From: Aphrocallistes beatrix
Lineage: Eukaryota; Porifera; Hexactinellida; Sceptrulophora; Aphrocallistidae
DNA length: 64,000 nucleotides
Assembly (NCBI GenBank): GCA_963281255.1
Contig: OY725492.1
Span: 4,963,571-5,027,570 of the forward strand
Direction: 5' to 3'
The notes under the pieces are model-generated. The model was not told the DNA's origin and did not search any database. It saw only the letters and a list, made by a program, of their open reading frames with translations. Below are positions 18,955-58,732 of the stretch, in pieces. A program made the position numbers and the translations under genes. Position 1 is the stretch's first letter. Every line of letters begins with the position of its first letter.

Positions 18955-18964
18955 TATCAGTGTA

Positions 18965-25161: not shown

Positions 25162-25345
25162 ATATTATACTCTTAAGTAACTTGATCTCCTCTCTGAGTG
25201 TAGTATTCACTGTGCAGTATTTGTATGTGAATCGATAGAATCGAGTTGAGTTGAGTAGAATTGCTAACTGCGTTATTATCTGTTGAATAGAATAGTGAGA
25301 CATCTCTGTACTCTGTTGCTAGCTGAGAGAGAATAGGAGTGAAGG
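25162..25345 (+). promoter_or_regulatory. Conserved upstream block of NHL copy 4
   Basis: Same block as before the three intact genes, still well conserved although the downstream frame is broken. Confidence 0.55.
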
Positions 25346-36750: not shown

Positions 36751-39700
36751 ATGACGTCACTGGAATCAGACCCAGTGGTACGTTCCTATGACGTATTCAT
36801 ATCCCAGGCGCTGAACGAACAGCTGCATGTGCTGCAGTACCCCACCAGACCTGCCTACCTCCCCTTCAACCCCAACCAACTCCAGTCCGCCAAGGTTAAA
36901 CCCAACCAGATACGCGTCCAGCTGGAATACCAGGTTCCTGTCCCTAACAACCCCGCCAGATTCTGCCCAATCAGGGCTCAGCAGCAAGCTCTAGGTGTGA
37001 AGATTTTATGTTAATTATATTTTTATGTTTTGATATATGATAAATCGCCTTTTTTACATAGGTTGAAGGTTTTTCGTATAATAATTAGCTATCTTTTATT
37101 TCAAATTGTTAACTTATTGAAAATGGAGCTCACCTTATCTAATGCATTGCTCTTATGAATCTCACTGCCATACTGAGGTATCTATTTTGGTAGAGACAGG
37201 CTAGAACTAAACTCTAGAATAAGTTTAAAATTATTGGATAATTATTTAAGACAAGAGCGGATCACTTGTTGCGCTGTGTGGTGTCAATTTTCGAATATTC
37301 TCAACTGAAAAAGCTGTTTTCACAGATTTCTTATTAATACGTATATATATTCCAAAAATGCCACACAAATCAAGCATTTTCAATCGATTCCTTTCTCAAG
37401 ATAAACACAAACTAACGAATATGTAATAGTGAGATAAGACACTCAATTCAATTTGATCCAATACTTAAGATTATAAATGAGAGAAAATCCAGATAATTGA
37501 TTGGTGCTAGTATAGTTATGCATATTTTGGTTGTCTGAACTCGGTACTGACATGACAACACTCTAGAGCAGTCAGCTGATTACTTGGAGACACATCCCCC
37601 CTCCTACACCCTCACTTCTGAGTCTGGAGACAGATCTGGAGATAGGTATGCGGTGGCCGTACTGAAAGACAGGTCTCTCCACCTCAACCCACTCCAGGCC
37701 GTCATCCAGCTCAGACCGGATGTGACACACCGAGGAGACAAGGATCAGCTGATCAAGCAGGAAGATGAGACAGATGGTGAGCTATTTATAGAAGAGGACT
37801 AGAGGAGATTGATTGGATTGGTTGCAAACTAATATTCAGTGAAACTGATGATATCTAGTACACAATAGTATGTCCATTGATTTGATAGGGAAAAGATAAC
37901 ACAGCTGGAATTCATTACGAGATTCTGTATATAAGTGAATGCGAGTAGAAACTTGATTAGTCATTGTATGTGCTATCAGTAGGCTATTTCCATATCTTAA
38001 TAAGGATGTAAGTTTAGTTGTTTTTATTCCTATTTATATCTCAGAACAGAACGAGGAGATCGTTCCTCTCCAGATGAAAGTGGCGCGTCCTTCGACCAAT
38101 CAGAATCGCGCTTCTCAGCGCAGGAAGGAGAGGGAGCAGCTGGAGGAGAACTGGGTGCCGCTGTCCTATAACAACTTCGAGAGTGGCACTGCCAGCTATC
38201 TGCGGAGTCTCTTGTTCGGGAATGTGGAAGCAGAGCAGACCGGAACTCAGCCAATCAGCAACGAGGAGTATATGGAACAGCTGGCACAGGTGTCACGGAA
38301 AGTGGAGACACCAACGGTAGGTGTTAGTTCCGGTTTTAGGGGAGCTTAAAATTGGTAAATTTTGTACTGATATGGGAAAATTTAACGAAATACAGTTTGT
38401 GATTGGCTCGAGAGATTTAGTCTAGTCTGCATAGTTAATGATTTATTCTAAATGAATTAATTTAATCACATACTTGTAATATCACCTAAGAGTAACTTAT
38501 GGATTTTGGACTAGGGATACACATAAACTATTCAAGAAGATTTAAATTCTATTACACAATATTCTAACTGATGTCCAAATAAATGGGCTTTTAGAGCGAA
38601 TGAAAAGTTGTGTTTTTCATGATGCAAATCGTGATTTCCAAATTCAAACAATCCGATCTGATAAAATCTTCTAAATCAGTAGAGAGAGGGATAGAACATA
38701 TTTCTATCGGTTTAGAAGAAAGTAAACCAAAATTCCCTCTTTGCATTTCTATTAATGGAATTGTAGTCAGTAGAGAATCTTTTACGTCCTTTTGGCTGAT
38801 CACACGCGTGATAATTGTCATGCTGAGAGGCCAATCTAAGCTTTCATGGTTACTAGATTTGACAAGAGTTAAATATATTTTAAAACCCGCACCAGTTGTG
38901 TGATGTGACAATGTGAAGGGGTACATCGCTATACTAAAATCTTTAGACAAAGTAGAGCCTAGAGAACTGAAGAATCCCAGATGTGGCTTAAAGTATTTGA
39001 GGATGTGTTTGATACTCCATTTCACGATTCCCTTTTGCCTGAATTGATTTGCTTCTACCAATGATTTGATCTCTACATCTTTCACTTCCAACTCATGTTC
39101 TAAACCTTGGATATGTTTCTTTAGCAATATATTGTCCTCCGCTAACGTGTCAAGTTTCAGTTCTGTGTGTAACAATCTATTCTCTTCTAAATGTTGCTTC
39201 AACTCCCTTCGCTTTAACCCCATTACTTCACACCCGTACTTGACATACGGACACATAACTGTCTCTTCAGAACATTCATTCTGTCTGTGGTATAATGTGT
39301 CTTCGCGATGCATACGTGTCCCACATCCCAATTCACACATTACTTCTACTTTCCCACACACCTCCACATGCGCTGCCATCTCACACACTTTATACATTCC
39401 TGAACAGTGCAAACACGCCTCTTCACGTTGAGTGCATTCTTCTCGCACATGTCCTATCATCTCATCTCTTGTTAACACTACACCACACATTAGTTCACAT
39501 GACACATACACGTACTGACATACAGTCATATGGTATTCCACATTTCCTAGCTTTCCCAGCCAATCACATCCTCGCTTGGATAAAGGACAGCTGCACTTGA
39601 GTGATAGGATTGTGATACGAATTGGTGCATTGGAATGTGGTTGTTCTCCTACTATGAGACAGCAAGCACACAGCTGTTCTCCTTTCTCAGTAGTGGAACA

Positions 39701-41458: not shown

Positions 41459-41534
<76 letters not shown>

Positions 41535-41725
41535 TAGAACTCGGTTAGTAGGTACCCCTCCGGGAAGCGGAAAAAAGTACGTACTATCCGTAAGTACGTA
41601 CTAACCGAGTTGATATTACATAGGAATCTATATATTAATTAAATGAATTTTGGTTTAGAGAAATGAGTACGTACTAAGCCGAAGTACGTCTTATCCCGAG
41701 TACGTACTAACCGAGTTCTACTGTA

Positions 41726-41772
<47 letters not shown>

Positions 41773-44700: not shown

Positions 44701-47700
44701 ATGAAGCACGATGCAGTTCTATACCAACTTTCATATCCTGAGTCAGTGCCATAGGATGAATAGTGTCCTTTACCACTTTTTAGTGCCGCTCCTAGTATAT
44801 AATTTATTATTACATTTTAAAACCAAATATTTTGATTTTTGTTTATCGAAATGATCAGTGCTTATTTTGCTGAAACAGTGAAAATTTATTCTCTTCCTCT
44901 TTCTACCGATCTGAAAGAATTCATCAATCCAGGCTGTTTGGATTTAGAGGTTAGGATCCGTATATTTAAAAACCAAGACTTCTCATCCCATTGACAAATA
45001 ACATTGTTCATGAACAATTATATTTGAAATTTTATATCTTTTTCGTCCTATTTATTTATTTATTTATTTATCCACAATAATATTCCAAATAGATATAAAT
45101 ACTTTATACTAGAATATTAAACACACAGCAATAAGGAGTCCGTTATAATCATGGTAGTTATATTGTTATTGTATATTTAGTTGACATTTTAGTTCGAGAC
45201 TGGCACTTGTTTGAGCTACTCAATATTCCATCAAGGTAAATAATGGTAAATAATAATTTCACACAAAATGAAACAATATATTCGATAATAGTAACACATA
45301 ACAGACAAGTAGAGGGGCAGCTAGATACACTGAGAAGAAGAATTGGAAATGATGACAAGCCCTATTGAAAATCATTTGTTTTTCAGTATATGAAGCGTCA
45401 CTTCCACTTCCAAATTATCAAACCAAATAAAATCTTTTAAATTGAACGACAAAGGAATAAAACATATTTGCACTCTAGATGAAGGTTTACCGTAATCTTT
45501 TCTATGAATTTCAATGAGTGGCGTTTTAGATATCTGAGAGTTTTTGATGTCTACATGACAGATAACTCGTGTGATGATCAGTACTCTTAGTGGCCAGATT
45601 AACATGTCATGATTACTTAATTTGGATGGAATAAAATGGATATGAAAATACTTAGCATTTGTTACATAGGACAATGTAAATGGGTACTTCCCGACTGCGA
45701 ATTCTTTAGAAACGTTAGACCCCGGAGTAGGGAATATCACATTTGGCTTAAAATAATTTTGTATGTTTTTAATGTTCCATTTGACAGTTCCTTCGAATCT
45801 GAATTGGTTTTCTTCTATCAAGAATTCTTTTTTGCATTTTAAATTCAATTTACATTCTAAATCTTCAATCTGTTGTTTAAATGACTCAACCATGGAATTA
45901 AATCTCATTTCTGTTTGTTCTTCCAATGTGTCAAGTTTCATTTCTGTGTGTAACAATCGATTCTCTTCTAAATGTTGTTTCAACTCCCTTCGCTTTAACT
46001 CCACCACTTCACACCCATACTTGACATACGGACACATAACTGTCTCTTCAGAACATTCACTCTGTCTGTGGTATAATGTGTCTTCGCGTTTCACACGTGT
46101 CCCACATCCCAATTCACACATTACTTCTACCTTCCCACACACCTCCACATGCTCTGCCATCTCACACACTTTATGCATTCCTGAACAGTGCCAACACGCC
46201 TCTTCACGTTGAGTGCATTCCTCTCTCACATGTCTTCTCATCTCATCTCTTGTTAACACTACACCGCACATCAGTTCACATGACACATACACGTACTCAC
46301 ATACAGCCAGATGGTATTCCACATTTCCCAGCTTACCCAGCCAATCACATCCTCGTTTGAATAGGGGACAGCTGCACTTGAGTGATTTTATTGTGATACG
46401 AATTGGTTCATTTGATTGTAGTTGTTCTCCTACTCTGAGACAACAAGCGCACATTTGTTCTCCTTCGTAATTGGAACAATCCTTCATTATCCCTTCACAC
46501 CTTGGGCACCTATAGCTGGTTTTCTCCTTTTCAGAAAGGTTTTCAGTTAGTATTTCACACATGTACCCTCCCAATGAACCTTCTCGCTTCACGCGACACA
46601 ACTCAAATCCTACCTCAGCCACTAACGGTACAATGCATTCTGCCATACTTCCTAATGAGCTCTGTACTGAATGATAATAGTTCAGTTAAATACATAATCT
46701 ACTACTTATTCTGTACTGAGCATATCAAGATGAAACACGATATGTCAGTGTTCTCTGTTCATACGCGAGCTTGCATTTTCAAACCAATATTTATAGTAGA
46801 ACCTGTTTACTAGTTGCACTTTTCAATATATAAAGGCCAGTTTTTTTTCTGTGACAAGCACCCAAAAACAGAAAATTATTTTGCTCGTCTACTTGCTTGC
46901 TCCTTCGGTCATTGACTGCACTACTTTTACTTCGCATCAAGTTTCAGTCAATGCCCTACGAGTCACTTAATTGAGCTGCACTTATCAGTCTGTCGACTGA
47001 CATTTTTAAATTTCTGTAAGTTGGGTTTTATATATCAGAGAATCTTATCATTATGTCAGATCACTTGCGTGATATTATAAGTATTTATCAAAGAAGTCAA
47101 ACTAATAACTCATATGATAGTTTGATTCGAGCTTAGATGGATCAGTAGAATCTCTATAATCTGACACTGTTTCGTATCCCAATAAGCTTCATACCATGCA
47201 ATTATACCGCATAATCCAACCGTTTGGCACTAACACTTTTTTCGTTTCCAGAGACCAAAATAAAGTTTCTCAAAAGATAACTGATTCTAGGTATAAAAAT
47301 GCACTAATCTATGTATTTTATACAGACTGAGTGGATCATATTGAAGCGAAAGTTAGTTCCATAACGTAATTACTCGAATCAGTTTCAATATAGTTGTGTT
47401 GTTTCAGAGATCGCGCTAGACTAATGTGGTTGCTTAGTCATGAAATTCAGTCTGCAAGGAATTTGTATTTTAAAATATTCGGTTTGAATTGGATGATGCA
47501 ACAATGCAAAAGCGAATATGCTCAACAAAACTATTTGTTTACCTTATATCAATCCAACTGACTGTTTCCAGACATAACTGTTCTTTCTTCGTTACACTTT
47601 ATTTTGAGAAATATGGCTGAACCCATTGTACCACTAGTTGCTGAGGTAGATGTTGAGTTGTGTCGCGTGAAGGGAGAAGGAGGCTCATTGAAAGGGTACA

Positions 47701-50700
47701 GGTGTGAAATAGTAACTGAGAATCTTTCTGAGAGGGAGAGGACAATCTACAAGTGTCTGAGGTGTAAAGGGATAATGAAGGATTGTTCCACTTCCAAAAG
47801 AGGCGCACAAATGTGTGCATGCTGTCTCAGAGTAGGAGAACAATCACATTCCAATGCACCAATTCGTAACACAATCCTATCACTGAAGTGCAGCTGTCCA
47901 TTATCCAAGCGAGGATGTGTTTGGCTGGGTAAGCTAGGAAATGTTGAGTACCATTTGGATGTATGTCAGTACGTGTATGTGTCATGTAAACTGATGTGTG
48001 GCGTAGTGTTAACACGAGATGAGATGAGAAGACATGTGCGGGAGGAATGCCCTCAACGTCCAAAGGCGTGTTTGCACTGTTCAGGAATGCATAAAGTGTG
48101 TGAGATGGCAGAGCATGTGGAGGTGTGTGGGAAGTTAGAAGTAATGTGTGAATTGGGATGTGGGACACGTGTGAAACGCGAAGACACATTATACCACAGA
48201 GAGAATGAATGTTCTGAAGAGACAGTTTTGTGTCCGTATTTCAAGTACAGGTGTGAAGTGGTGGAGTTAAAACGAAGGGAGTTGAAGCAACATTTGGAAG
48301 AGAATAGATTGTTACACACAGAACTGAAACTTAATACATTAGAAAAACAAACAGAACTGAAACTTAACAAATTAGAAAAACAAACAGAACTGAAACTTAA
48401 CAAATTAGAAGAACAAACAGAACTGAAACTTAACAAATTGGCAGAACATGTTGGATTTTTAGAAAATAAATTGCTTCTGAGAGAGAAAGAGATGGAATTA
48501 TTGCTTAAAGAGAGAACTAGACATGTGGGAACCGTTGAATGGAGCATACAGCATATCCTTAAATACTTCAGACCGAATCAAGGTAACTATTTTTGGGAGT
48601 CTAATTTTTCAAGACAATTGGAACTTGTGTTATTTCCGTTTAGGTTAAGCCATACCACTAATGCCACTCACTTCAACATTTATTTCCATCCTATAACTCC
48701 ATTATACCTCAAGATTTCAAATAATCACACTTTTTCATGGCCGATTAAAGTTATAATTTCCGTACGGGTTATTTGTCAAATGGATATAGAACAATCTCAG
48801 CTGTACAAAAGTCCGATTATCGAAATTAAAGATGCTTTTTCTGCAACAACAAAGAAAATTTGTTCTATTCCTCTCTCTACCGATCTGAAAGATTTCATCA
48901 GATCAGGCTGTTTGGATTTAGAGGTTAGGGTTCGTATATTTAAAGACTAAGTAGAACTTCTCACCCCATTAACATTATTCGTGAACATTTACATCTTTAC
49001 TTTTTCGTCATATTTATTTATTCAATTTTTATCCTTACTATTAAACTCGATTAATGTGTGTATATCATTGCTCGACAAATCAGGTGGTTTGGTGACGATA
49101 GCCACCAAAATTTATCGATAAGCAAATTCCCGAGCGTGGTGGCTAACTGAGCCACCAAACTTATTAGGTACTGAGTCTATTCATCTACCGCAGCGGTGGG
49201 CAACCTGGGGCCCGCGACTCTTCAAACACTATAATGGGGCCCACGTGTTAGTGATTGTAAGTATAATACAAAATGCAGAATAATTAATGCGACTACAAAA
49301 TAATTAATGTGACCCAAGGCGCCCATAGGACGTCTCAGGTGAAACCAGTCCAAGCAAGCGAAGCGCGTTTGTCTACAATGATGTTACAAATAAATATCAA
49401 AATGGGTAGTTTGGTATAAAATCTAGCTGAAATACGAATAAAAGAGTTATTTAGACTGATTGAAAAGTTGTATTTTTCAGGATACGAATCTTAACTTCCA
49501 AATCCAAAGAGTCTGATTTGATAAAATCTTCCAAATCAGTTGAGAAAGGGATAGAACATAGTACTATTAGTCTAGAAGAAAGCATCCCGCATTCTTCTTT
49601 CTGAATTTCTTCGAGTGGAGATGTAAATTCCATAGAATCTCTGTCGTCTCTATGACAGATTACTCGTGTACTGGTTACAACTCTTAGAGGCCAGTCCAAG
49701 TTATCATGATTGCTTGATTTGGATGGACTTAAATAGATACTGAAATAGTCGGAAGAATTTGCGTGATAATGCAAACTAAACTGATACATTGCTATTGTGA
49801 ATTCTTTGGAGCCATTTGAACCCAACGAAAATTTTCTCAGATTTGGTTTGAAAATTTTAAGAATGTTTTTGATGTTCCATTTCACAATTCCCTCTTGTTT
49901 TAATCGATTTTCCTCTGACAAGAAATCAATTTGGTTCTGAAGAAATTTATTGTCGTTGATTAATTCGTTAAGTTTGATTTTCGTTTGTTCTTCTAAAACT
50001 TTAAGTTTCAGTTCTGTTTGTTCTTCCAATGTGTTGAGTTTCATTTCTGTGTGTAACAATCGATTCTCTTCCAAATGTTGCTTCAACTCCCTCCGATTTA
50101 GTCCCATTACTTCACACCCATACTTGACGTACGGACACAAAACTGTCTCTTCAGAACATTCACTCTGTCTGTGGTACAAAGTGTCCTCACGATGCACACG
50201 TCTCCCACATCCCAATTCACACATTACTTCTACTTTCCCACACACCTCCACATGCTCTGCCATCTCACACACCTCATATATCCTTGAACAGTGCAAACAC
50301 ACCTCTTCACGTTGAGTGCATTCTTCCCGCACATGTCTTCTCATCTCACCTCTTGTTAACACTACGCCACACATCAGTTCACATGACACATACACGTACT
50401 CACATACAGCCAGATGGTATTCCACATTTCCTAGCTTACCCAGCCAATCACATCCTCGCTTGAATAAGGGACAGCTGCACTTGAGTGATAGGATTGTGAT
50501 ACGAATTGGTGCATTGGAATTGGAATGTGATCGTTCTTCTTCTCTGAGACAGCAAGCACACAGCTGTTCTCCTTTCTCAGTAGTGGAACAATCCTTCATT
50601 ATCCCTTCACACCTTGTGCACTTGTAGATAGTTTCCTCCCTCTCAGAAATGTTCTCAGTTAGAATTTCACACCTGTACCCTCCCAATGAACCTCCCTCCA

Positions 50701-53700
50701 GCTTCACGCGACACAACTCAAAACCTACCTCAGCCACTAATGGTACAATGCGTTCTGCCATACTTCCTAATGAGCTCTGTACTGAATGGTAATAGTTCAG
50801 TTAAATACATAATCTACTACTTATTCTGTATTGAGCATATCAAGATGAAACACGATATGTCAGTGTTCTCTGTTCATACGCGAGCTTGCATTTTGAAGCC
50901 AATATTTATAGTAGCACCTGTTTACTGGTTATGTCACGCCGTAACTGGTCCGGCCGGATCATCCACGGCAGCCGTGGATGGTCCCCCTATTAATATTACA
51001 GGAAATGTGCTCTCGTAACATTGTATTTGCATTTTTACTTTAGTATATTGTCTCAATCAATCTACGTATTTGGCAATACATTAAATAGGGGTAGGCCCAA
51101 CCAATATTTGGTGACAATAACTTATGAAGCTTAGAACCTTAAAAGAGAGAAATAATAATATAACACTTTACTTATACATCATTCAATATCGTTCTCTGAT
51201 TCAATAATTATGTCTAGTAGGTATGTATATAAAAACCCTTATTTGGTTACATATGAGTCGTCAATTGGTGACATGGTGGCATGCAGTGAATGTAAAAGCT
51301 GGTATCATGTTCACTGCGTTTCAGTACCTAAAGAAGCGCTTGAAGATAAGAAAGTGAGATGGCTGTGTGAAGAGTGTCAAGAAAAAATCTGATGAAAAAT
51401 AATAGCACTTAGTAATTTAGTCCTTTGGTGAATTAGATTAGTAGTACCATTATAGTAGTTAATAGTATTAGTTCTCTATTATTTTGCAAATAGGGGTAAG
51501 CAAGGGGCATGCTTAGGAATGAATTTGCGACGCCGTGAATAGTCGAAAAGTATATTATATGACAAAGGGGACCGTCCATGGCGCCGTACATGGTCCGGCG
51601 ACCATCCACGGCGCCGTGGATGGTCTCCCGGACCATGTACGGCGCCGTACTTGCGTGATAATTATAAGTATTAATCAAAGAAGTCAACCTAATATCTCAT
51701 ATGATAGTTTGATTCAGGCTTTGATGGATCAATTGAATCTCTATAATCCGACGCTGTTTCGTATCCCAATAACTTCATACCATGCAATTATACTGCATAA
51801 TCCAACCTCCAACACCTTTTTCGTTTCTCAGAGACCAAATAAAGATTCTCAAAAGATAATTGATTCTAGGATAAAAATGAGGTTCATTGAAAGAGTACAG
51901 GTGTGAAATGATGACTGCGAATCATTCTGAGAGGGAGAAGACAATCTACAAGTGAGATGTTTACTTTATGTATATATTGTAAACAAAAGCAAATAAATAA
52001 TTTATCATACGGACTTTCGAACTAATGCCAACGTCAGAATTAATTCGAACTAATGCATACCTTACTTTCGAACTAATGCCATCATATAAATTCGAAGGCC
52101 CGATTCTGTGAATTTTTTTGTTCTTTCAGAGATCACTCTTATTAGACTAATGATAAAATTCAGTCCATATAAGGAATTTGTACTTGAATATTCAGTTTGA
52201 ATTGGATGATGGCAACGATGCGAAAATGTATATGTGCTCAGCAAATACATATGCGTTTACCTTATATCTCAATCCAACTGAACTGTTCTATTATATAATT
52301 ATTGCAATAAACTATTTTTTCTTCGTTACACGGTTTATTTTGAGAAACATGGCTGAACGCATTGTACCACCAGTTGCTGAGGTAAGTATTGAGTTGTGTC
52401 GCGTGAAGGGAGAAGGGGGCTCATTGAGAGGATATATTCGTGAAATGATAACTGAGAATCTTTCTGAGAGGGAGAGAACGATCTACAGGTGTCCGAGGTG
52501 TGAAGGGATAATGAAGGATTGTTCCACTACTGAGAAAGGAGAACAGCTGTGTGCTTGCTGTCTTGGAGTAGGAGAAGAATCACATTCCAATGAACCAATT
52601 CGTATCAAAATCTTATCACTCAAGTGCAGCTGTCCATTATCCAAGCGAGGATGTGATTGGCTGGATAAGCTGGGAAACGTGGAAGACCATCTAGCTGTAT
52701 GTCAGTACGTGTATGAGTCATGTGTACTGATGTGTGGCGTAGTGTTAACAAGAGATGAGATGATAAGACATGTGCGAGAAGAATGCACTCAACGTGAAGA
52801 GGCGTGTTTGCACTGTTCAAGGATATATGAGGTGTGTGAGATGGCAGAGCATGTGGAGGTGTGTGGGAAGGTAGAAGTAATGTGTGAATTGGGATGTGGG
52901 ACACGTATGCGTCACGGAGACACTTTGTGTCACAGACATAATGAATGTTCTGAAGACACAGTTATGTGTCCATATGTCAAGTATGGGTGTAAAGCGATGG
53001 AATTAAAGCAAAGGGAATTGAGACAACATTTAGAAGAGAATCGATTGTTACACACAGAAATGAAATCAAACGCGCCGTTAGCTGAGAATAATCAATCGCT
53101 TAGAAACCAAATTGAGAGTCTAAATGTTAAATTAGAAATGAAGGATAAAGAGATAAAATTCTTGATAGAAGAAGTTCAATATGAGCGAGAAGAAACTGTG
53201 AGATGGCGCATACAGCGTATCCTCGAATACTTTAAACCGAATCAAGGTAATTATGTTTTGCTTCAAAAATTTTCAAGACAATTGGAATCTGTATTGTTCC
53301 CTTTTACGTTTAGATTAAGCCATACCACTAATGCCACTCACTTCAACATTTACTTTAATCATTCTAAAATACCGTGGTACCTCAATATTCCAAGGGGACC
53401 CAATTTTTATCATATTAAACTCGTATTTTTCGTACGGGTTATTTGCCATATAGGTATAGAACATTCTCTGCTGTATAAAAGTCCGATTGTCGAAATTAGG
53501 GATCCTTATTCTGCTGAAACAAATAAAATTTGTTCTATTCCTCTCTCTACCGATCTGAAAGGTTTCCTCAAATCAGGCTGTTTGGGTTTAGTGGTTAGGA
53601 TTTGTAAGTTTAAAGACCAAGACTTCTCACTCTATTAACATTTATGTTTGAAATTTTACAGCTTTACTTTTTTCTTCCTATTTATTTATTCAATTATTTA

Positions 53701-56700
53701 TCCACAATGATATTACAAATAAATATAAATACCTTTCTATTAGAATACTAAACACACAACAATAAATTTGACTAGCAAAACCATATTTGAGTTCAAAATG
53801 GGTAGTTTGGTACAATTTCTAACTGATATACAAATAAAGGAGTTATTTACACTGATTGAAAAGTTGTATTTTTCAGGATACGAATCGTGACTTCCAAATC
53901 CAAAGAGTCTGATTTGATAAAATCTTCTAAATCAGTTGAGAAAGGGATAGAACATAGTACTATTAGTTTAGAAGAAAGCATCCCGCAGTCTTCTTTCTGA
54001 ATTTCTTCGAGTGGAGGTGTAAATTCCATAGAATATATGTTGTTTCTATGACAGATTACTTGTGTACTGGTTACAACTCTTAGAGGCCAGTCCAAATTAT
54101 CATGATTGCTTGATTTGGATGGACTTAAATAGATACTGAAATAGTCGGGAGAGTTTGTGTGATAATGCAATCTAAACTGATACATCGCTATTGTGAATTC
54201 TTTGGAACCATTTGAACCCAAATTAAATAGTTTCAGATTTGGTTTGAAAATTTTAAGAATGTTTTTGATGTTCCATTTCACAATTCCCTCTTGTTTTAAT
54301 CGATTTTCCTCTGACAAGAAATCAATTTCTCTATCTTTCGCTAACAATCTATTTTCTAAACAGTCAATTTGGTTCTGAAGAAATTTATTGTCGTTGGTTA
54401 ATTCGTTAAGTTTGATTTTCGTTTGTTCTTCTAAAACTTTAAGTTTCAGTTCTGTTTGTTCTTCCAATGTGTTGAGTTTCATTTCTGTGTGGAAACATCG
54501 ATTCTCTTCCAAATGTTGTTTCAACTCCCTCCTATTTAACCCCATTACTTCACACCCATACTTGACGTACGGACACAAAACTGTCTCTTCAGAACATTCA
54601 CTCTGTCTGTGGTACAAAGTGTCCTCACGATGCACACGTCTCCCACATCCCAATTCACACATTACTTCTACCTTCCCACACACCTCCACATGCTCTGCCA
54701 TCTCACACACCTCATATATCCTTGAACAGTGCAAACACGCCTCTTCACGTTGAGTGCATTCTTCCCGCACATGTCTTCTCATCTCACCACTTGTTAACAC
54801 TGCACCACACATCAGTTCACATGATACATACACGTACAGACATGCAGCCAGATGGTCTTCCACATTTCCTAGCTTACCCAGCCAATCACATCCTCGCTTG
54901 AATTGGGGACAGCTGCACTTGAGTGATAGGATTGTGATACGAATTGGTGCATTGGAATTGGAATGTGATTCTTCTTTTTCTCTGAGACAGCAAGCACACA
55001 TCTGTTCTCCTTTCTCAGTAGTGGAACAATCCTTCATTATCCCTTCACATCTCAGACACTTGTAGATTGTCCTCTCCCTCTCAGAAAGATTCTCAGTTAG
55101 AATCCACCTGTACCCTCCCAATGAACCTCCCTCCATCTTCACGCGACACAACTCAATACCTTCCTCAGCCACTAACGGTGTAATGCGTTCTGCCATACTT
55201 GTATTGAATAATAATAGTTCAGTTAATTATATACTATACACTTATATATAGTAGTACGCGTATAGAGCATATCAATGATGAAACACGATATGTTAATGTT
55301 ACATTTCAAGATGCTATATTACTTGTATATAACTCATGACTCCAGCACCAATATTTATAGCATAATTTGTTGCTGGTTACACTTTTCAATATATAGAGGC
55401 CAAACTAATACATAGTCAGTTCTTCAAACGATCTTGAAACAGTATTTACATTGTGTTATTGATCTCATGATCTGAAAAATCATAAATTACAAATGCTTAT
55501 ATACTTATTGCTTATTCATACAAATGAAAATGAAAGGAGTATTTGTTCAATACATACTTCTAACATTGTTCTTTCATGGCCCCTCTTTTATCTGTTTTTG
55601 GGCCGCAGCCCACAATTTTTTCCATTAAGTCCGCCCTGGTCACACCATATAAGAAAAATAAACTTATTCATAAAGAGCATTTTATTAATTGAGAGGGAAA
55701 ATTTTTAAAATTAGTATTAACAGCTGTGGACTGTAAAGTTACTTCAGAAATGGTGCAGTCAATTCTCCTCCTATATGGTAGCAGTGTGTGCGATTAGACT
55801 TCCCACGAATAACCTTGGAGATCAGGACATACCACGTGTAGAAGGTGATGAAAACGAAAGGAGAAAATGCTGAGATACCTCCAAGATATGCTAAAGCATA
55901 CCCAGCTAGCGTTGAGTAGGAAGCAACTTCTTCTCCTATAGCATAATACTTAGAAGCAGTGAAGGCTTGTAGGAGAGGAGAGTGACATCTTAAATAAGCT
56001 ATTACACTGGTTAGAAATTCCGGATAGTCAATCAGGAAATTTGCCAGTATTATAAGTATGAAACCGAGGCGATAGAATAGCATGGTTATTTTGAAACGTC
56101 TATACTCTCGATGTTCTTCTTTGTTCCTTCCATATTGTGTGAGTCGTTCTCCTGCTCTCTGCAATAAAGTGGCCTCGAATCTCTTCACACCTCTCAAAAA
56201 TATGTATAGATATATAAGACCGATAATTGGAAATATGATCCTATTTATATAGACAGTTGATGATACTATTATTAGAAAGCTTAACACTACAGTGATGGCT
56301 ATAAAACATCTGGATTTTGACTTGTACGAAAATTGGATTTTCTTAATTCTCTGAGTAAGATATTGCATTAAAAGTACGGTCAATAAAATGATGTACAAAT
56401 ATGCAACATTTTGTAGAGCCCAGATAATGTTAATAACCGAGTTGATAACGAGTTCTCTCGAAATCTCATTACGAGTACAGTTCAGATCAGTTATGCCTCT
56501 AATTCCAGTTTCTGCTAAATAGTTCGCAGTTATATATTGACTCAAAGCATTCATTGTGATGGCGTAGCCTTCAGCGATGATAATTAATATTAGGAACTTG
56601 TATTTCTGAACATCTGTCTGATGATGGTAAGCAGCTTGTTCAAACATATTTCCAGAACTATTTGTGGCAGAAAATGTGTGTTGCAATGCCACTTTTATAT

Positions 56701-58732
56701 ATTTTCTGAGCTGAAGAATTCGGCTTATAAGGAACAAGATCCAATATATGCTCATGAGTAGGAAACACAGAGGCAATGCAGATAATATCACAATTGAAAC
56801 TTGCATTATAACTTTATATGTTAGTTAACTTGAAACTTAAATATACCTATTTATAGCCTATGATTTCAATTCGGAGACTGATGTAGCAGAAACTTTCCTT
56901 CTAGGATGATATCTCAACAAGGGATATCATATGTTAAATATATTTAATCTTATTTACAAGTTGAGTTGTGAGTTTATACTCGGCATTATGTCATCATATT
57001 TGAATTAGTTTATCCCAGTTTTATTCAATTTCAAAAAATGAAAAGGCCTCATGACTTAGAAATTTAACCTTAATTCTTTCTAAATCATAGTCATATGCTT
57101 ATCAACTCCACTCTACATCTGATATGAGTAGTGGCTACATATAATAAGTACAACTAATATATTATAAGCTCAGCTCTGTTTATTAAGTGCAAAAAGATCA
57201 TTTTTAATATTTCCTTTTTAATGGCACTCCTGGATAAAATATACTGCACTATCATACATATAAGGACTGCTCATTTTATGTAAGTTTTACCAAACTTGAT
57301 ATGAACAGTCCCTATATCATGTAGATTTGTAATGATTATTCATATTTTCACACCTTGTCTCAAAACGTGAAAACTAAGTTTATTTTATTATTATTTATTA
57401 ATGTAGGCGCCAATTGACACACAAGCACTCCTGGAGAGGAGTATCCGGAATAAACCAATCAAAGAGCAGCTTCTGCACACCCTGAGAAAGACAGCTGGCA
57501 ACTGTGTCAAGTTCTCATTCATACAGGGCTTGCTTGGCAACCAATTCTCTCCGGAGAATTTACTCAAGACACTGGAACAGATATCTATGTTAGTTCAGGG
57601 TTGGTTTGTCCTAAATTCCTGTGAGCTCTACCCTGCCAACGACACCTTGGAACCTGGACAAGTGGATCCTCTGGAGGTACAGAGGGGACGTGACTATATA
57701 TTGTGCCACTACGCACTATACAAGGGTCTCAACAAAAATGACACATTCCAATTACTCAAGTTGACTACTAGGCAGTTTAATGAGGTGTTCAGTGCTGTGT
57801 CTAGTTTCCATTTTAGAGACAAGCACTGCTTCAAATATGCAGAAGATTCTATTTTTATCAAAGAACACGCTCCCTTGTGTAGAAAGCATAATCTCTATTG
57901 GAACGAGGTAGGAACACTTAATGCCTCTCATTTCCTATACTAGTCTTCCATGGTTAGGAATTCTGAACATTTCAAATGGCGCACCCATGTTGAAACACCT
58001 ATTTTTTCATATTTCAGACTACAAAATATTTTTAAAACTTATAATTTATAATTTCTTCATAAATACTCCCTTGGTTAAATTCCTAACATTCCATTCATCA
58101 TGATCTGTATCTAGGTCTACGAGAAGATCAAGAAGCATTTCAAACTCGATAATCCAGTTCCCAAAGAAGTTACCATCTCTCAAAAAATCAAACACAGTTC
58201 CAAGAAAACCTTCTCCCCGGTAGACATAGTGTCTGATGGCATATCAGCTCCTGCCACCAAGAAACCACGTTCAACCACTTCCATAATAGAACCCAGCACC
58301 GTGCGACAGTTGCTGGGAGACTCGCCTATGCCACTGCAACACTTGAAGCAAAAAGTTTTTAAGATTTACAGAGAAATAAAACACGAAAATAAGGAGCTAA
58401 ATGATCTGTTCAAAACGCCAGAGTTGTTTGATGAAGTAATGCATACTATTCTACAGGAAATTAACGCGGCAATTATCCAAATCCCCGCCTCTTCTGGTTC
58501 TAATAATAGTATCATCGTCGTCGCGCGGGAGACCGGCAGTTCCAATGACGTGTACAGAATGGCGCTCATTTCTTCACTGCAGAATAGGCCCAGTCAGCGA
58601 AAAGCAGAACTGACATCAGAATTGAAGAAGTCGATTGGTTCAATTCCTGAGAAGAAAGAGCTGGATCAGATACTGGAGAGTGTCTGTGACGTCACTGGGG
58701 GCTTCTATCAGATCAAAGGATTGGATAGCTGA
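36751..58732 (+). CDS. POLR3E: RNA polymerase III subunit RPC5
   Basis: Exons 36751-36994, 37576-37776, 38045-38316, 57407-57907 and 58115-58732 join with matching phases to 611 residues. The N-terminus has DPVVRSYDVF and LQYPTRPA, typical of the RPC5 dimerisation domain that pairs with RPC4. Later pieces match the family order: RYAVAVLKDRSLHLNPL, LRPDVTHRGDK, RPSTNQNRASQRRK, MLVQGWFVLNSCELYP, and a C-terminal winged-helix-like end with VCDVTGGFYQIKGLD. RPC5 is a Pol III-specific subunit used in initiation at tRNA and 5S genes. Intron three is about 19 kb, and the cluster of TRAF-like genes and a membrane protein gene lie inside it. Joining across that intron is inferred from domain continuity, codon phase 0 on both sides, and GT-AG borders. 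Confidence 0.85.
38591..39871 (-). CDS. TRAF-like protein 1 (degenerate RING, TRAF zinc fingers, MATH)
   Basis: 426 residues, intronless, antisense to POLR3E. In order: residues about 46-72 align with a TRAF RING (YKCPRCKGIMKDC then LCACC), but the central CxH ligands are replaced; about 90-225 has Cys/His-rich TRAF-type zinc fingers (CDWLGKLGNVEYH, CELMCGVVLTRDEM, CELGCGTR); about 230-275 is a coiled coil; about 280-426 is a divergent MATH/TRAF-C domain (VKWSIKHILKYF, FKIYLTLV, IPLSTDLEDF). TRAFs are adaptors for TNF-type and Toll-type receptors; the damaged RING argues against ligase activity. The coiled coil has one 11-residue repeat. The upstream flank is shared with TRAF-like 2. Confidence 0.85.
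   Translation of the reverse strand: MAERIVPLVAEVGTDLCRVELKGGSLGGYRCEILNENLSERENAIYKCPRCKGIMKDCSTTEKGEQLCACCLIVGEQPHSNAPIRITILSLKCSCPLSKRGCDWLGKLGNVEYHMTVCQYVYVSCELMCGVVLTRDEMIGHVREECTQREEACLHCSGMYKVCEMAAHVEVCGKVEVMCELGCGTRMHREDTLYHRQNECSEETVMCPYVKYGCEVMGLKRRELKQHLEENRLLHTELKLDTLAEDNILLKKHIQGLEHELEVKDVEIKSLVEANQFRQKGIVKWSIKHILKYFKPHLGFFSSLGSTLSKDFSIAMYPFTLSHHTTGAGFKIYLTLVKSSNHESLDWPLSMTIITRVISQKDVKDSLLTTIPLIEMQRGNFGLLSSKPIEICSIPLSTDLEDFIRSDCLNLEITICIMKNTTFHSL
39872..40339 (-). promoter_or_regulatory. Upstream region class A of TRAF-like 1
   Basis: About 250 bp before the start codon matches the region upstream of TRAF-like 2 (44542-44800), through landmarks such as ACCACTTACGGCATATA and ACAGTCCGATATTTCAATGA. 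Neither the minus-strand class B nor the plus-strand class C genes have it. Confidence 0.55.
40340..40575 (+). pseudogene. Plus-strand TRAF-like 5' fragment
   Basis: It starts with the class C upstream block (GGTTTGAATTGGATGAT) seen before TRAF-like 4 and 6. It reaches an ATG at 40499 with the family N-terminus (TERIVPLVPEV) and diverges after about 15 codons, stopping at 40575. It is a truncated gene with its promoter left in place. Confidence 0.75.
40975..41290. mobile_element. Tc1/mariner-type MITE, 316 bp
   Basis: CAGTACACCCTCGATAGTCC at the left and GATTAGCGAGGGTGTACTG at the right are inverted copies. TA flanks both ends (40973-40974 and 41291-41292). The interior also has repeated CTAATCCGAAC words. 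It is non-coding. Confidence 0.85.
41461..41531. repeat. (AT)n microsatellite, left
   Basis: A nearly pure AT dinucleotide run of about 70 bp, ending exactly where a mariner-type MITE begins. Confidence 0.95.
41532..41723. mobile_element. Mariner-type MITE inside an AT microsatellite
   Basis: CAGTAGAACTCGGTTAGTA and its inverse TACTAACCGAGTTCTACTG form perfect 19-bp ends. TA flanks both. Internal 'agtacgta' words occur in both orientations. AT repeats on both sides show that it jumped into one microsatellite and split it. Confidence 0.88.
41729..41771. repeat. (TA)n microsatellite, right
   Basis: About 40 bp of TA repeat directly after the MITE, presumably the other half of the interrupted tract. 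Confidence 0.9.
41771..41880. repeat. Dispersed repeat shared with 18431 and 22174
   Basis: From CGAATTGATTGAAGAAACTG to CTCATCATGG this matches both copies inside the Tc1-like remnants with few changes. The minus strand reads as a short Ser/Leu-rich frame in both places, so it may be a worn piece of transposase; this is not certain. Confidence 0.6.
41881..43215. other. Non-coding with transposon and TRAF fragments
   Basis: 42740-42815 is a minus-strand fragment of a TRAF-like 3' coding end ('tgaaaagttgtgttttt', 'gtagagagagggatag'). 42815-42910 is a fragment of the 29872 MITE family. The rest shows nothing recognisable. Confidence 0.55.
43216..44541 (-). CDS. TRAF-like protein 2
   Basis: 441 residues from the family start MAERIVPLV; an in-frame extension of 23 codons upstream is not conserved in paralogs, so I reject it. 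Degenerate RING (YKCLRCEGIMKDC, LCACC), TRAF-type zinc fingers, a coiled coil with two 11-residue repeats (TELKLNTLEEQ, TELKLNALAEN), then MATH-like TGWSIQDILKYFKPN to the end. It shares its C-terminal style (SAERQKICSIPLSTDLKDFI) with TRAF-like 4 and 6, but its upstream region with TRAF-like 1. This mix suggests recombination or conversion within the cluster. Confidence 0.85.
   Translation of the reverse strand: MAERIVPLVAEVGTDLCRVEQEGGSLGGYRCEILTENLSERENAIYKCLRCEGIMKDCSITEKGEQLCACCLREEELSNSNFNEPIHITILSLKCSCPLSKRGCDWLGKLGNVEDHMAVCQYVYVSCELMCGVVLTRNEMIGHVREECTQREEACLHCSGIHKMCEMAEHVEVCGKVEVMCELGCEIRIHREDTLYHRENECSEETVMCPYVKYRCEVVELKRRELKQHLEENRLLHTELKLNTLEEQTELKLNALAENNQSLRSQIESLNVKLEMKDKEIQFLLGEVQYGREGTTGWSIQDILKYFKPNKSNYFWGNNFSKLLEPLEMLTFRLSHTTDATHFNIYFHPIIQPLVPMIPSMFNLYWLFKVKFFVRVICHIDMEHSLLYKSPIIEIKDAYSAERQKICSIPLSTDLKDFIRSGCLDLEVKTRIFKNQYSSPH
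44542..44800 (-). promoter_or_regulatory. Upstream region class A of TRAF-like 2
   Basis: Matches the flank of TRAF-like 1 for about 250 bp, including ACCACTTACGGCATATA and CAATATTTCAATGAAG. Confidence 0.55.
44869..44994 (+). pseudogene. Plus-strand TRAF-like C-terminal fragment
   Basis: An open frame here gives the last about 40 codons of the family (PLSTDLKEFINPGCLDLEV, then KNQDFSSH and stop), with no upstream coding part. It is a leftover of a plus-strand gene close to TRAF-like 2 and 6. Confidence 0.7.
45372..46646 (-). CDS. TRAF-like protein 3
   Basis: 424 residues, intronless. RING-like YRCPRCEGIMKDC and MCACC, TRAF-type zinc fingers, a coiled coil with two 11-residue repeats (TEMKLDTLEEQ, TEMRFNSMVES), and a MATH-like C-terminus starting VKWNIKNIQNYF. 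It is more diverged than the others in both the second repeat and the MATH part. Upstream region class B with a TATA box at 46788-46795. Confidence 0.85.
   Translation of the reverse strand: MAECIVPLVAEVGFELCRVKREGSLGGYMCEILTENLSEKEKTSYRCPRCEGIMKDCSNYEGEQMCACCLRVGEQLQSNEPIRITIKSLKCSCPLFKRGCDWLGKLGNVEYHLAVCEYVYVSCELMCGVVLTRDEMRRHVREECTQREEACWHCSGMHKVCEMAEHVEVCGKVEVMCELGCGTRVKREDTLYHRQSECSEETVMCPYVKYGCEVVELKRRELKQHLEENRLLHTEMKLDTLEEQTEMRFNSMVESFKQQIEDLECKLNLKCKKEFLIEENQFRFEGTVKWNIKNIQNYFKPNVIFPTPGSNVSKEFAVGKYPFTLSYVTNAKYFHIHFIPSKLSNHDMLIWPLRVLIITRVICHVDIKNSQISKTPLIEIHRKDYGKPSSRVQICFIPLSFNLKDFIWFDNLEVEVTLHILKNK
46788..46795 (-). promoter_or_regulatory. TATA box, TRAF-like 3 (class B)
   Basis: TATAAATA on the minus strand, 142 bp before the start codon, inside a block shared with the flanks of TRAF-like 5 and 7. 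Confidence 0.6.
46816..47470. other. Spacer with a duplicated protein-like remnant
   Basis: 47070-47290 matches 51655-51880. The latter has an open frame, while this copy carries several stops. 47330-47600 is the class C upstream block of TRAF-like 4. Confidence 0.6.
47471..47612 (+). promoter_or_regulatory. Upstream region class C of TRAF-like 4
   Basis: GGTTTGAATTGGATGAT through a TATA-like TTATATCAATCCAACTGA about 65 bp before the ATG. It is conserved before TRAF-like 6 (52184-52348) and the 40340 fragment. Confidence 0.6.
47613..48950 (+). CDS. TRAF-like protein 4
   Basis: 445 residues on the POLR3E strand. The start is the ATG after a TTG that opens the frame. RING-like YKCLRCKGIMKDC and MCACC, TRAF-type zinc fingers (CVWLGKLGNVEYH, CGTRVKREDTLYH), then four consecutive 11-residue repeats of the TELKLNxLExQ type (48318-48449), a further coiled coil, and a MATH-like domain from VEWSIQHILKYF. 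Four repeats is the largest number in the cluster. The C-terminus (KKICSIPLSTDLKDFI) groups it with 2 and 6. Confidence 0.85.
   Translation: MAEPIVPLVAEVDVELCRVKGEGGSLKGYRCEIVTENLSERERTIYKCLRCKGIMKDCSTSKRGAQMCACCLRVGEQSHSNAPIRNTILSLKCSCPLSKRGCVWLGKLGNVEYHLDVCQYVYVSCKLMCGVVLTRDEMRRHVREECPQRPKACLHCSGMHKVCEMAEHVEVCGKLEVMCELGCGTRVKREDTLYHRENECSEETVLCPYFKYRCEVVELKRRELKQHLEENRLLHTELKLNTLEKQTELKLNKLEKQTELKLNKLEEQTELKLNKLAEHVGFLENKLLLREKEMELLLKERTRHVGTVEWSIQHILKYFRPNQGNYFWESNFSRQLELVLFPFRLSHTTNATHFNIYFHPITPLYLKISNNHTFSWPIKVIISVRVICQMDIEQSQLYKSPIIEIKDAFSATTKKICSIPLSTDLKDFIRSGCLDLEVRVRIFKD
48318..48449 (+). repeat. 33-bp coding repeat, four copies
   Basis: The unit 'acagaactgaaacttaacaa' plus 'attagaaaaaca' recurs with period 33 bp. 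It encodes an 11-residue coiled-coil (hendecad) unit. Copy number differs between the paralogs. Confidence 0.85.
48951..49450. other. Spacer with hAT-like fragments
   Basis: 49070-49170 has 'accaccaaa'/'tttggtggc' inverted words. 49190-49250 (CAGCGGTGGGCAACCTGGGG) has the look of a hAT-type terminus. No gene. Confidence 0.5.
49451..50761 (-). CDS. TRAF-like protein 5
   Basis: 436 residues. RING-like YKCTRCEGIMKDC and LCACC; TRAF-type zinc fingers; coiled coil with three 11-residue repeats (TEMKLNTLEEQ, TELKLKVLEEQ, TKIKLNELIND); MATH-like domain from VKWNIKNILKIFKPN. It is a close duplicate of TRAF-like 7, differing mainly by lack of about 13 residues in the coiled coil. Class B upstream region. 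Confidence 0.85.
   Translation of the reverse strand: MAERIVPLVAEVGFELCRVKLEGGSLGGYRCEILTENISEREETIYKCTRCEGIMKDCSTTEKGEQLCACCLREEERSHSNSNAPIRITILSLKCSCPLFKRGCDWLGKLGNVEYHLAVCEYVYVSCELMCGVVLTRGEMRRHVREECTQREEVCLHCSRIYEVCEMAEHVEVCGKVEVMCELGCGRRVHREDTLYHRQSECSEETVLCPYVKYGCEVMGLNRRELKQHLEENRLLHTEMKLNTLEEQTELKLKVLEEQTKIKLNELINDNKFLQNQIDFLSEENRLKQEGIVKWNIKNILKIFKPNLRKFSLGSNGSKEFTIAMYQFSLHYHANSSDYFSIYLSPSKSSNHDNLDWPLRVVTSTRVICHRDDRDSMEFTSPLEEIQKEECGMLSSRLIVLCSIPFSTDLEDFIKSDSLDLEVKIRILKNTTFQSV
50903..50910 (-). promoter_or_regulatory. TATA box, TRAF-like 5 (class B)
   Basis: TATAAATA on the minus strand, 142 bp before the start, exactly the spacing seen for TRAF-like 3. Confidence 0.6.
50936..51209. 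other. Spacer with GGATCATCCACGGC inverted word
   Basis: Near 50945-50990 'catccacggcagccgtggatg' is a near-palindrome related to the larger palindrome at 51573-51653. Otherwise AT-rich and without a gene. Confidence 0.55.
51210..51392 (+). pseudogene. PHD-finger remnant
   Basis: A 60-codon frame ends in a PHD-like pattern: CSECKSWYHVHC ... WLCEEC gives CxxC-x4-H-x2-C ... CxxC. The first ligand pair expected in a PHD finger (CxC before KPY) reads YVYKNPY, with Tyr in place of both Cys. It stands alone, near a 51655-51880 remnant, and may derive from a transposon-encoded PHD domain. A donor-like AG|GTATGT after the fourth codon leaves open that it is an exon. Confidence 0.5.
51573..51653. repeat. 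Nested GC-rich palindrome
   Basis: The centre CCATCCACGGCGCCGTGGAT is palindromic, and it is surrounded by a second inverted pair (GCCGTACATGGTCCGG and CCGGACCATGTACGGC). The whole can form a long cruciform. GC content is far above the AT-rich surroundings. Confidence 0.8.
51655..51955 (+). pseudogene. Unknown coding remnant followed by a TRAF-like fragment
   Basis: The frame over 51655-51890 reads as protein (SYDSLIQALMDQLNLYNPTL, RIPITSYHAIILHNP), and a decayed copy sits at 47070-47290. It joins at about 51880 to a piece of TRAF-like 5' coding (GGTTCATTGAAAGAGTACAG to CTACAAGTGA). I do not recognise the first part. Confidence 0.5.
52184..52348 (+). promoter_or_regulatory. Upstream region class C of TRAF-like 6
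   Basis: Shares GTTTGAATTGGATGAT and TTATATCTCAATCCAACTGA with the flanks of TRAF-like 4 and the 40340 fragment. The TATA-like word is about 85 bp before the ATG. Confidence 0.6.
52349..53638 (+). CDS. TRAF-like protein 6
   Basis: 429 residues from the family ATG; a longer in-frame extension through the class C promoter block is rejected because it is promoter sequence in the paralogs. RING-like YRCPRCEGIMKDC and LCACC; zinc fingers (CDWLDKLGNVEDH, CGTRMRHGDTLCH); one short 11-residue unit; a coiled coil; MATH-like domain from VRWRIQRILEYFKPN. The C-terminus groups with TRAF-like 2 and 4. Confidence 0.85.
   Translation: MAERIVPPVAEVSIELCRVKGEGGSLRGYIREMITENLSERERTIYRCPRCEGIMKDCSTTEKGEQLCACCLGVGEESHSNEPIRIKILSLKCSCPLSKRGCDWLDKLGNVEDHLAVCQYVYESCVLMCGVVLTRDEMIRHVREECTQREEACLHCSRIYEVCEMAEHVEVCGKVEVMCELGCGTRMRHGDTLCHRHNECSEDTVMCPYVKYGCKAMELKQRELRQHLEENRLLHTEMKSNAPLAENNQSLRNQIESLNVKLEMKDKEIKFLIEEVQYEREETVRWRIQRILEYFKPNQGNYVLLQKFSRQLESVLFPFTFRLSHTTNATHFNIYFNHSKIPWYLNIPRGPNFYHIKLVFFVRVICHIGIEHSLLYKSPIVEIRDPYSAETNKICSIPLSTDLKGFLKSGCLGLVVRICKFKDQDFSLY
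53847..55196 (-). CDS. TRAF-like protein 7
   Basis: 449 residues, nearly identical to TRAF-like 5. RING-like YKCLRCEGIMKDC and MCACC; zinc fingers; three 11-residue repeats (TEMKLNTLEEQ, TELKLKVLEEQ, TKIKLNELTND), then about 13 extra coiled-coil residues (CLENRLLAKDREI) missing from TRAF-like 5; MATH-like domain. One residue of the N-terminal GGYRC is lost (GGYRW). Class B upstream region. Confidence 0.85.
   Translation of the reverse strand: MAERITPLVAEEGIELCRVKMEGGSLGGYRWILTENLSERERTIYKCLRCEGIMKDCSTTEKGEQMCACCLREKEESHSNSNAPIRITILSLKCSCPQFKRGCDWLGKLGNVEDHLAACLYVYVSCELMCGAVLTSGEMRRHVREECTQREEACLHCSRIYEVCEMAEHVEVCGKVEVMCELGCGRRVHREDTLYHRQSECSEETVLCPYVKYGCEVMGLNRRELKQHLEENRCFHTEMKLNTLEEQTELKLKVLEEQTKIKLNELTNDNKFLQNQIDCLENRLLAKDREIDFLSEENRLKQEGIVKWNIKNILKIFKPNLKLFNLGSNGSKEFTIAMYQFRLHYHTNSPDYFSIYLSPSKSSNHDNLDWPLRVVTSTQVICHRNNIYSMEFTPPLEEIQKEDCGMLSSKLIVLCSIPFSTDLEDFIKSDSLDLEVTIRILKNTTFQSV
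55352..55359 (-). promoter_or_regulatory. TATA box, TRAF-like 7 (class B)
   Basis: TATAAATA on the minus strand, 156 bp before the start, in a diverged version of the class B flank. Confidence 0.55.
55386..55738. other. Spacer
   Basis: No gene. A stretch near 55580-55640 ('tgggccgcagcccacaattt') resembles a hAT-type terminus. Confidence 0.4.
55739..56806 (-). CDS. Seven-helix membrane protein, family unknown
   Basis: 355 residues, intronless, last gene inside the POLR3E intron. Hydrophobic segments lie near residues 3-29, 69-93, 120-149, 167-186, 189-204, 240-260 and 299-331, which fits seven membrane helices with basic loops (RIKKIQFSYKSKSR, REYRRFK). No DRY-like or NPxxY motif is seen, so it is not a plain rhodopsin-type GPCR. 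It could be a chemoreceptor-like or orphan receptor; only the membrane topology is supported. Confidence 0.65.
   Translation of the reverse strand: MQVSIVILSALPLCFLLMSIYWILFLISRILQLRKYIKVALQHTFSATNSSGNMFEQAAYHHQTDVQKYKFLILIIIAEGYAITMNALSQYITANYLAETGIRGITDLNCTRNEISRELVINSVINIIWALQNVAYLYIILLTVLLMQYLTQRIKKIQFSYKSKSRCFIAITVVLSFLIIVSSTVYINRIIFPIIGLIYLYIFLRGVKRFEATLLQRAGERLTQYGRNKEEHREYRRFKITMLFYRLGFILIILANFLIDYPEFLTSVIAYLRCHSPLLQAFTASKYYAIGEEVASYSTLAGYALAYLGGISAFSPFVFITFYTWYVLISKVIRGKSNRTHCYHIGGELTAPFLK
56807..57406. other. Right end of the large POLR3E intron
   Basis: AT-rich with no gene. The branch and acceptor region before 57407 is rich in T and A (TTATTATTATTTATTAATGTAG). Confidence 0.5.

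What the first reader, a model, noticed from the sequence alone, without database searches (positions are those of the whole stretch)
38317..57406. A cluster of seven TRAF-like genes and a membrane-protein gene nested in one intron of POLR3E
Exons 1-3 of POLR3E end at 38316 and exons 4-5 start at 57407. Phases, GT-AG borders and RPC5 domain order agree across the gap, while the other introns are under 600 bp. Inside are seven intact TRAF-like genes (five antisense, if the membrane gene is not counted; two on the host strand), fragments and a seven-helix protein. A fast-growing adaptor family living inside a Pol III subunit gene links its expression and copy-number changes to an essential host gene. 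Plus-strand members and their polyadenylation signals should also interfere with host transcription.
Basis: partly seen in the sequence, partly recalled or inferred. Interest (0 to 1): 0.88.

Follow-up and report, generated by a model that had tools for sequence, protein, structure and literature searches.

The report
Gene family nested in POLR3E intron
One 19-kb intron of an animal's gene for an RNA polymerase III subunit holds seven intact copies of an immune-adaptor-like gene plus one membrane-protein gene; this is a real and unusually dense case of a known arrangement, genes nested inside an intron, and the nested genes probably have their own control sequences.

Summary
POLR3E (RPC5) is modelled as one five-exon gene (36751-58732, 614 aa) whose third intron is 19,090 bp (38317-57406, phase 0, GT-AG). 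The RPC5 profile is continuous across the junction, the joined protein aligns to human RPC5, and the RPC5 domain has no second copy in the 100.5-Mb assembly. Inside lie seven intact single-exon TRAF-like genes (five antisense, two sense), three fragments and a gene with seven hydrophobic segments; coding fills 54%. The seven form one clade apart from 21 other members compared, were duplicated with flanking DNA, and are under purifying selection. Five share a promoter-like motif with two unlinked members, so independent promoters are likely; coupling to POLR3E expression is not shown. Their N-terminal halves look homogenised by gene conversion while MATH halves diverge. Introns of 15-24 kb occur elsewhere here (3 of 66 exon pairs sampled), and nested genes make up about 12% of genes or exonic bases in a glass sponge and a ctenophore, so the kind is known. 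Unusual are the density, the fact that every family match found on this contig is in this intron, and perfect self-complementary runs up to 124 nt. No RNA or relative genome was available.

The parts
36751..36994 (+). POLR3E exon 1 (first ATG to donor)
   Evidence: profile 1-75 of PF04801
37567..37776 (+). POLR3E exon 2 (start has alternatives of a few codons)
   Evidence: profile 96-147
38045..38316 (+). POLR3E exon 3, donor ACG|GTAGGT, phase 0
   Evidence: profile 161-251
38317..57406 (+). POLR3E intron 3, 19,090 bp, host of the nested genes; 53.6% coding
38591..39871 (-). Nested TRAF-like gene N1m, 426 aa
43216..44541 (-). Nested TRAF-like gene N2m, 441 aa
45372..46646 (-). Nested TRAF-like gene N3m, 424 aa
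47613..48950 (+). Nested TRAF-like gene N4p, 445 aa, host-sense
49451..50761 (-). Nested TRAF-like gene N5m, 436 aa; model has a TRAF-C/MATH fold
52349..53638 (+). Nested TRAF-like gene N6p, 429 aa, host-sense
53847..55196 (-). Nested TRAF-like gene N7m, 449 aa
40488..40549 (+). Fragment of the 5' end of a TRAF-like gene
   Evidence: family D13, 82-85% identical to the N4p and N6p starts
44821..44991 (+). Fragment of the 3' (MATH) end of a TRAF-like gene
51881..51952 (+). Fragment of the N-terminal part of a TRAF-like gene
55739..56806 (-). Nested membrane-protein gene, 355 aa, 7 hydrophobic segments; large family in the genome, no significant Pfam or PDB match
47516..47560 (+). Promoter-like motif ATATGCTC..AACTG upstream of N4p; similar motifs upstream of N6p (from 52230, +), N3m (from 46725, -), N5m (from 50840, -), N7m (from 55272, -)
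   Evidence: defined after inspection
52778..54764 (.). Outer limits of the longest perfect self-complementary pair (124 nt per arm) on the host strand, N6p against N7m
57407..57907 (+). POLR3E exon 4, phase 0
   Evidence: profile 263-422
58115..58732 (+). POLR3E exon 5 to stop

Best explanation
POLR3E is an intact gene whose third intron was entered by a single-exon TRAF-like gene. That founder multiplied in place by DNA duplication and inversion (shown by clade structure, shared flanks and opposite orientations) to seven intact copies and three fragments. A separate single-exon membrane-protein gene also lies there. The nested genes are probably transcribed from their own family-type promoters (inferred from shared upstream motifs), while POLR3E is transcribed through the whole 19 kb and the intron is spliced out (inferred from splice sites and frame). 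Gene conversion probably keeps the N-terminal zinc-finger halves alike while the MATH (ligand-binding) halves diverge. The proteins probably act as TRAF-like adaptors with a constant signalling part and a variable recognition part (inferred).
Against: No RNA evidence for the splice junction or for nested promoters. The motif was defined after looking at these sequences and its regex form is missing from N1m, N2m, the C8 satellite (L010) and all 18 C9 members tested. A second control weakens the gene-conversion step: nested against C9 members also differ less in the N-terminal half (0.333) than in MATH (0.599) at fourfold sites, so part of the contrast may be regional; confidence was lowered for this on re-checking. 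The MATH-only tree gives the nested clade less support (95/88) and a 10-sequence MATH tree does not keep it together, so two founders are possible. Splice sites were not scored against a genome-wide consensus. The N-terminal half of the structure model is of low confidence.
Confidence: 0.78

Rival explanations
1. Split gene: exons 1-3 and exons 4-5 are separate transcription units, giving a short Rpc37-like protein and a separate C-terminal protein, or are joined only by trans-splicing.
For: Two 282-residue RPC5 chains in the PDB (yeast Rpc37, organism recalled) match only query 5-173, against 708 residues in the human-like chain, so a short form can work. Exon 3 read-through meets a stop at 38347-38349 and an AATAAA at 38578. 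The glass sponge A. vastus uses some trans-splicing (PMC10282587, passages).
Against: Exon 4's frame has a stop directly before it and no ATG until well inside the conserved RPC5 region. Splice sites and phase agree. AATAAA at 38578 is one of 21 on that strand, only a mild excess over chance.
Confidence: 0.06
2. Assembly error: the TRAF cluster was misjoined into POLR3E.
For: Similar copies within the cluster could mislead assembly; reads could not be inspected.
Against: No N in the window; both POLR3E halves are in the right order, orientation and phase on one 5.6-Mb contig, and the RPC5 domain matches nowhere else. A random misjoin would not be expected to do this.
Confidence: 0.03
3. Regulatory nesting: transcription of the nested genes, mostly antisense, tunes POLR3E by collision or premature polyadenylation, like the antisense MIR inside mammalian Polr3e.
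For: Precedent in mammalian Polr3e (PMC5358760, abstract and Discussion read). Five antisense genes; poly(A) hexamers mildly enriched on both strands.
Against: No Pol III type unit found in the window (0 tRNA, 0 Rfam matches at gathering score). Intron residence is not seen for three other family islands: among 10 flanking ORFs scanned around the C8, C11 and C19 members no host gene appears on both sides (for C19 only one ORF). No expression data.
Confidence: 0.12

Closest known systems
Nested intronic genes of non-bilaterian animals (glass sponge Aphrocallistes vastus, ctenophore Hormiphora californensis)
   Same: Genes inside introns of unrelated host genes, on either strand; 2432 nested genes (12.4%) in A. 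vastus (PMC10282587, passages); 2357 nested genes in 1654 hosts in H. californensis, 12.24% of exonic bases (PMC8527503, passages).
   Different: Here one intron holds eight genes, seven from one family multiplied in place, filling over half of the intron.
Polr3e antisense MIR of mammals
   Same: A transcription unit nested antisense in an intron of the same host gene (PMC5358760, abstract and Discussion).
   Different: There a Pol III transcribed SINE in intron 1; here protein-coding genes in intron 3 and no recognisable Pol III gene.
AIG1-domain cluster of A. vastus
   Same: Lineage-specific local expansion of a family linked to immunity; 50 genes in one block, 38 of them single-exon (PMC10282587, passages).
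   Different: Different family; the passages describe genes interleaved with others, not one intron.
TRAF family
   Same: TRAF zinc fingers, long helix, C-terminal MATH/TRAF-C fold.
   Different: No RING family found by Pfam in 28 members; single exon; 108 match rows in one genome; MATH below Pfam's cut-off in the nested members.

Membership tests
POLR3E / RPC5 | RPC5 domain over the curated cut-off and collinear with human RPC5 | tested here: met
   4 exon matches in order, all over the cut-off; RPC5 chain 7asv_B E 1.1e-44
Nested intronic gene cluster | Genes lie wholly between the splice sites of one host intron | tested here: met
   By sequence: GT-AG, phase 0, all eight ORFs inside 38317-57406
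Nested intronic gene cluster | Host mRNA joins the flanking exons and nested genes have their own transcripts | not testable with these tools
   No RNA data for this genome
TRAF | TRAF-type zinc fingers | tested here: met
   zf-TRAF in 28 of 28 members scanned; over the cut-off in all 7 nested
TRAF | C-terminal MATH/TRAF-C domain | tested here: met
TRAF | Coiled coil before the MATH domain | tested here: inconclusive
   One helix 223-284 in the model directly before the beta sandwich; coiled-coil character was not scored
TRAF | N-terminal RING | tested here: inconclusive
   No RING family in 28 scanned, but invariant C48, C51, C68, C71; model there mostly near or below pLDDT 50
Polr3e-MIR type interference | Pol III transcription unit inside the intron | tested here: inconclusive
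   0 tRNA and 0 Rfam matches in the window; a lineage-specific SINE would not be in these libraries
Retrogene cluster | Intronless copies without shared flanks, with poly(A) or target-site duplications | tested here: inconclusive
   Intronless; nested copies share flanks, so they duplicated as DNA; the founder's origin, tails and target sites were not tested

The most novel reading that the evidence does not exclude
The POLR3E pre-mRNA itself is an RNA regulator of the TRAF family. Its intron carries sense and antisense copies with 159 maximal perfect complementary runs of 21 nt or more (up to 124 nt), which could fold into long double-stranded RNA, be cut by the several Dicer-like enzymes, and silence or edit TRAF transcripts in step with Pol III subunit production.
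Probability: 0.05. Interest if true: 0.75.

Novelty: new member of a known kind. Interest (0 to 1): 0.4.

Why it matters
It is a compact natural case for how a large adaptor family spreads through a small animal genome: a gene lands in an intron of a gene needed by every cell, multiplies there, apparently with its own promoter, and seems to exchange its N-terminal half by gene conversion while its recognition half diverges. It also gives a clean test of whether a housekeeping gene pays a cost for carrying eight genes and long self-complementary sequence in one intron. In the main C9 array, the MATH halves of the 18 intact members tested evolve at a rate not distinguishable from neutral (omega 0.96), which is worth testing as a recognition repertoire.

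Tried and rejected
Pol III units in the intron, to match the mammalian Polr3e case: none found. Preference of the family for introns: the C8, C11 and C19 members were looked at by flanking ORFs, 10 of which (chosen by eye) were scanned with Pfam; matches were WAPL, DNAAF11, an Rpc31-domain gene, a Na/H exchanger, actin, Ras, an NHL gene and a death-effector match below its cut-off, two ORFs had none, and no host gene appeared on both sides. Only these 3 islands were examined, C19 with a single ORF. Uniqueness of a 19-kb intron: rejected, 3 of 66 adjacent exon pairs in myosin and kinesin heads are 15 kb or longer (pairs kept only if nearly adjacent in the profile; 5 of the 66 gaps are negative or under 25 bp and are overlapping or split matches rather than introns). 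Two of those long introns were sampled: 19,981 of 20,789 bp of one had 0 ATG ORFs of 200 aa or more; the first 9,976 of 23,575 bp of another had 1; the POLR3E intron has 8, and the first 36.5 kb of the window also 8. Wnt search gave 0; the tool warns this does not show absence, so the glass-sponge assignment stays an inference. PDB profile searches with the TRAF and membrane-protein alignments found nothing significant. A Foldseek search was never accepted, and the structure of the membrane protein was never returned (last asked). Codon-model output did not give omega; obtained. Searches in print: (Trichoplax or Hexactinellida with TRAF, placozoa with nested genes, Polr3e interference, KRTAP10/TSPEAR, nested tandem clusters, MATH expansion, glass-sponge genomes); none of the titles and abstracts listed showed this locus. 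Passages or sections were read of four papers only: PMC10282587, PMC8527503, PMC10280926, PMC5358760.

Full report
Host gene. The four RPC5 (PF04801) matches in the whole 100.5-Mb, 28-contig assembly all lie in this window, in order and on one strand. The gene model is 36751-36994, 37567-37776, 38045-38316, 57407-57907 and 58115-58732, 614 aa, with introns of 572, 268, 19,090 and 207 bp. The exon 1/2 and exon 4/5 borders have alternatives of a few codons; the long intron does not depend on them. Around the junction, 11 residues fill exactly the 11 profile positions between the exon-3 and exon-4 matches. The joined protein aligns to human RPC5 from residue 2 to 443 through the junction (the query typed there lacks two residues of the later model). 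Exon 4's frame has a stop directly before it and no ATG before conserved RPC5 sequence. One gene with a long intron is therefore by far the best reading, though no RNA was available.

The family in the genome. A search with N5m gave 108 match rows, some genes split in two rows, from 96 scored of 480 candidates, so counts are lower bounds. 85 of the 108 rows are on C9, nearly all at 3.92-4.43 Mb. All 8 rows on C6 are the seven nested genes. Of 24 other family loci read (L010, L012-L034, the best-scoring ones), 23 have no in-frame stop and one (L024) has one; lower-scoring rows include copies with several stops, so this sample leans towards intact genes. Trees used the 21 whose ORF the script picked up, plus the seven nested. 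The seven form one clade (100/100). With the N-terminal part alone the clade holds (100/99) and with the MATH part less firmly (95/88); a ten-sequence MATH tree puts three nested genes apart from the other four, which group with the satellites. One founder is likely, two are possible.

How the cluster grew. Upstream and downstream flanks (600 bp each compared) are shared between nested copies (N1m/N2m 260 bp at 87%; N3m/N5m 169 bp at 96%) but, apart from two short downstream matches (25 and 42 nt), not with members on other contigs. So copies multiplied as DNA inside the intron. Between the two nested MATH clades, fourfold sites differ at 0.17 in the N-terminal half and 0.59 in MATH; nested against satellites gives 0.395 in both halves; but nested against C9 gives 0.333 and 0.599, so part of the contrast may be regional. 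Within C9 it is 0.061 and 0.113, between satellites 0.303 and 0.283. For N1m and N2m, dS is 0.12 in the N-terminal half and 2.42, that is saturated, in MATH, and the two halves of N1m place it differently in the trees. Gene conversion of the N-terminal half with its upstream DNA explains this best. A 124-nt perfect inverted match between N6p and N7m fits recent exchange. Codon models on gap-free columns give omega 0.47 and 0.51 for the two halves of the nested genes, both below 1 (p 2.7e-8 and 3.7e-8), 0.59 for the C9 N-terminal half (p 5.7e-6) and 0.96 for C9 MATH, not different from 1 (p 0.66) (18 C9 members with an intact ORF).

Transcription. A motif ATATGCTC with AACTG downstream, noticed by eye in the upstream regions, lies 76-119 bp before the ATG of 5 of 7 nested genes and of 2 of 3 satellites (C11, C19); its regex form is missing before N1m, N2m, the C8 satellite and the 18 C9 members, and it is nowhere else in the window on either strand. 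A stricter form occurs 18 times in the genome (reversed control 6), 4 of them directly upstream of family genes, three nested and C11. It was defined after the fact, yet its presence at unlinked members argues that nested genes brought a family promoter along. AATAAA counts in the intron are 21 on the host strand (expected 14.3, sd 3.5; 7 of 200 simulations reach it) and 30 on the other (19.6, sd 4.5; 5 of 200). Some interference with POLR3E is possible, and mammalian Polr3e gives a precedent with an antisense Pol III unit (PMC5358760; abstract and Discussion read), but no Pol III gene was found here.

How unusual it is. Among 66 adjacent exon pairs of myosin and kinesin genes in this genome, the median gap is 161 bp and 3 are 15.6-23.6 kb, so the length alone is not unique. 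The two other long introns sampled had 0 and 1 ORFs of 200 aa or more, in stretches of 19,981 and 9,976 bp, against 8 in 19,090 bp here; the first 36.5 kb of the window, ordinary gene-bearing sequence, has 8. In print, 12.4% of genes are nested in the glass sponge A. vastus (PMC10282587, passages) and 12.24% of exonic bases lie in nested genes in the ctenophore H. californensis (PMC8527503, passages). The organism here is unnamed. The many single-exon genes and the lack of a Wnt match (no positive control) fit a glass sponge, for which loss of Wnt signalling is reported (PMC5684314, seen as a listing; PMC10280926, passage); this is inference.

Most novel reading. The host strand of the intron has 159 maximal perfect self-complementary runs of 21 nt or more; two same-size stretches of the window have none. 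The genome has three places with paired RNase III domains in one long frame, a fourth with two matches, adenosine-deaminase (A_deamin) matches at two loci and many Piwi-domain genes (the names Dicer, Drosha and ADAR are my reading). A POLR3E-derived double-stranded RNA acting on the TRAF family is thus not excluded, but nothing shows it.

Noticed in passing
window 14197-26620: Tandem repeat of about 3.74 kb: NHL-repeat single-exon genes (15409, 19149, 22892, and a broken fourth at 25346), with copies of the 3' end of the upstream 1120-aa ORF gene between them.
   Followed up: partly
L056:3262-3903 (C8:3298961-3299602): A gene with an Rpc31 domain, another Pol III subunit, lies about 3 kb from the C8 TRAF satellite; the DNAAF11 gene lies between them, so the satellite does not look nested in it; probably coincidence.
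   Followed up: partly
C9:3.92-4.43 Mb (L012-L022, L024-L033 except L017): Array of tens of TRAF-like genes with near-constant N-terminal halves and MATH halves at omega 0.96 in the intact members tested; could be a recognition repertoire.
   Followed up: partly
window 34412-35515: Single-exon phosphagen (guanidino) kinase gene in the stretch of highest G+C of the window (0.496 in the 34001-36000 bin).
   Followed up: no
genome C13, C8, C11, C16, C1, C7, C3, C19: Many Piwi-domain genes (24 match rows, 11 spanning most of the domain), including four close together on C13.
   Followed up: no
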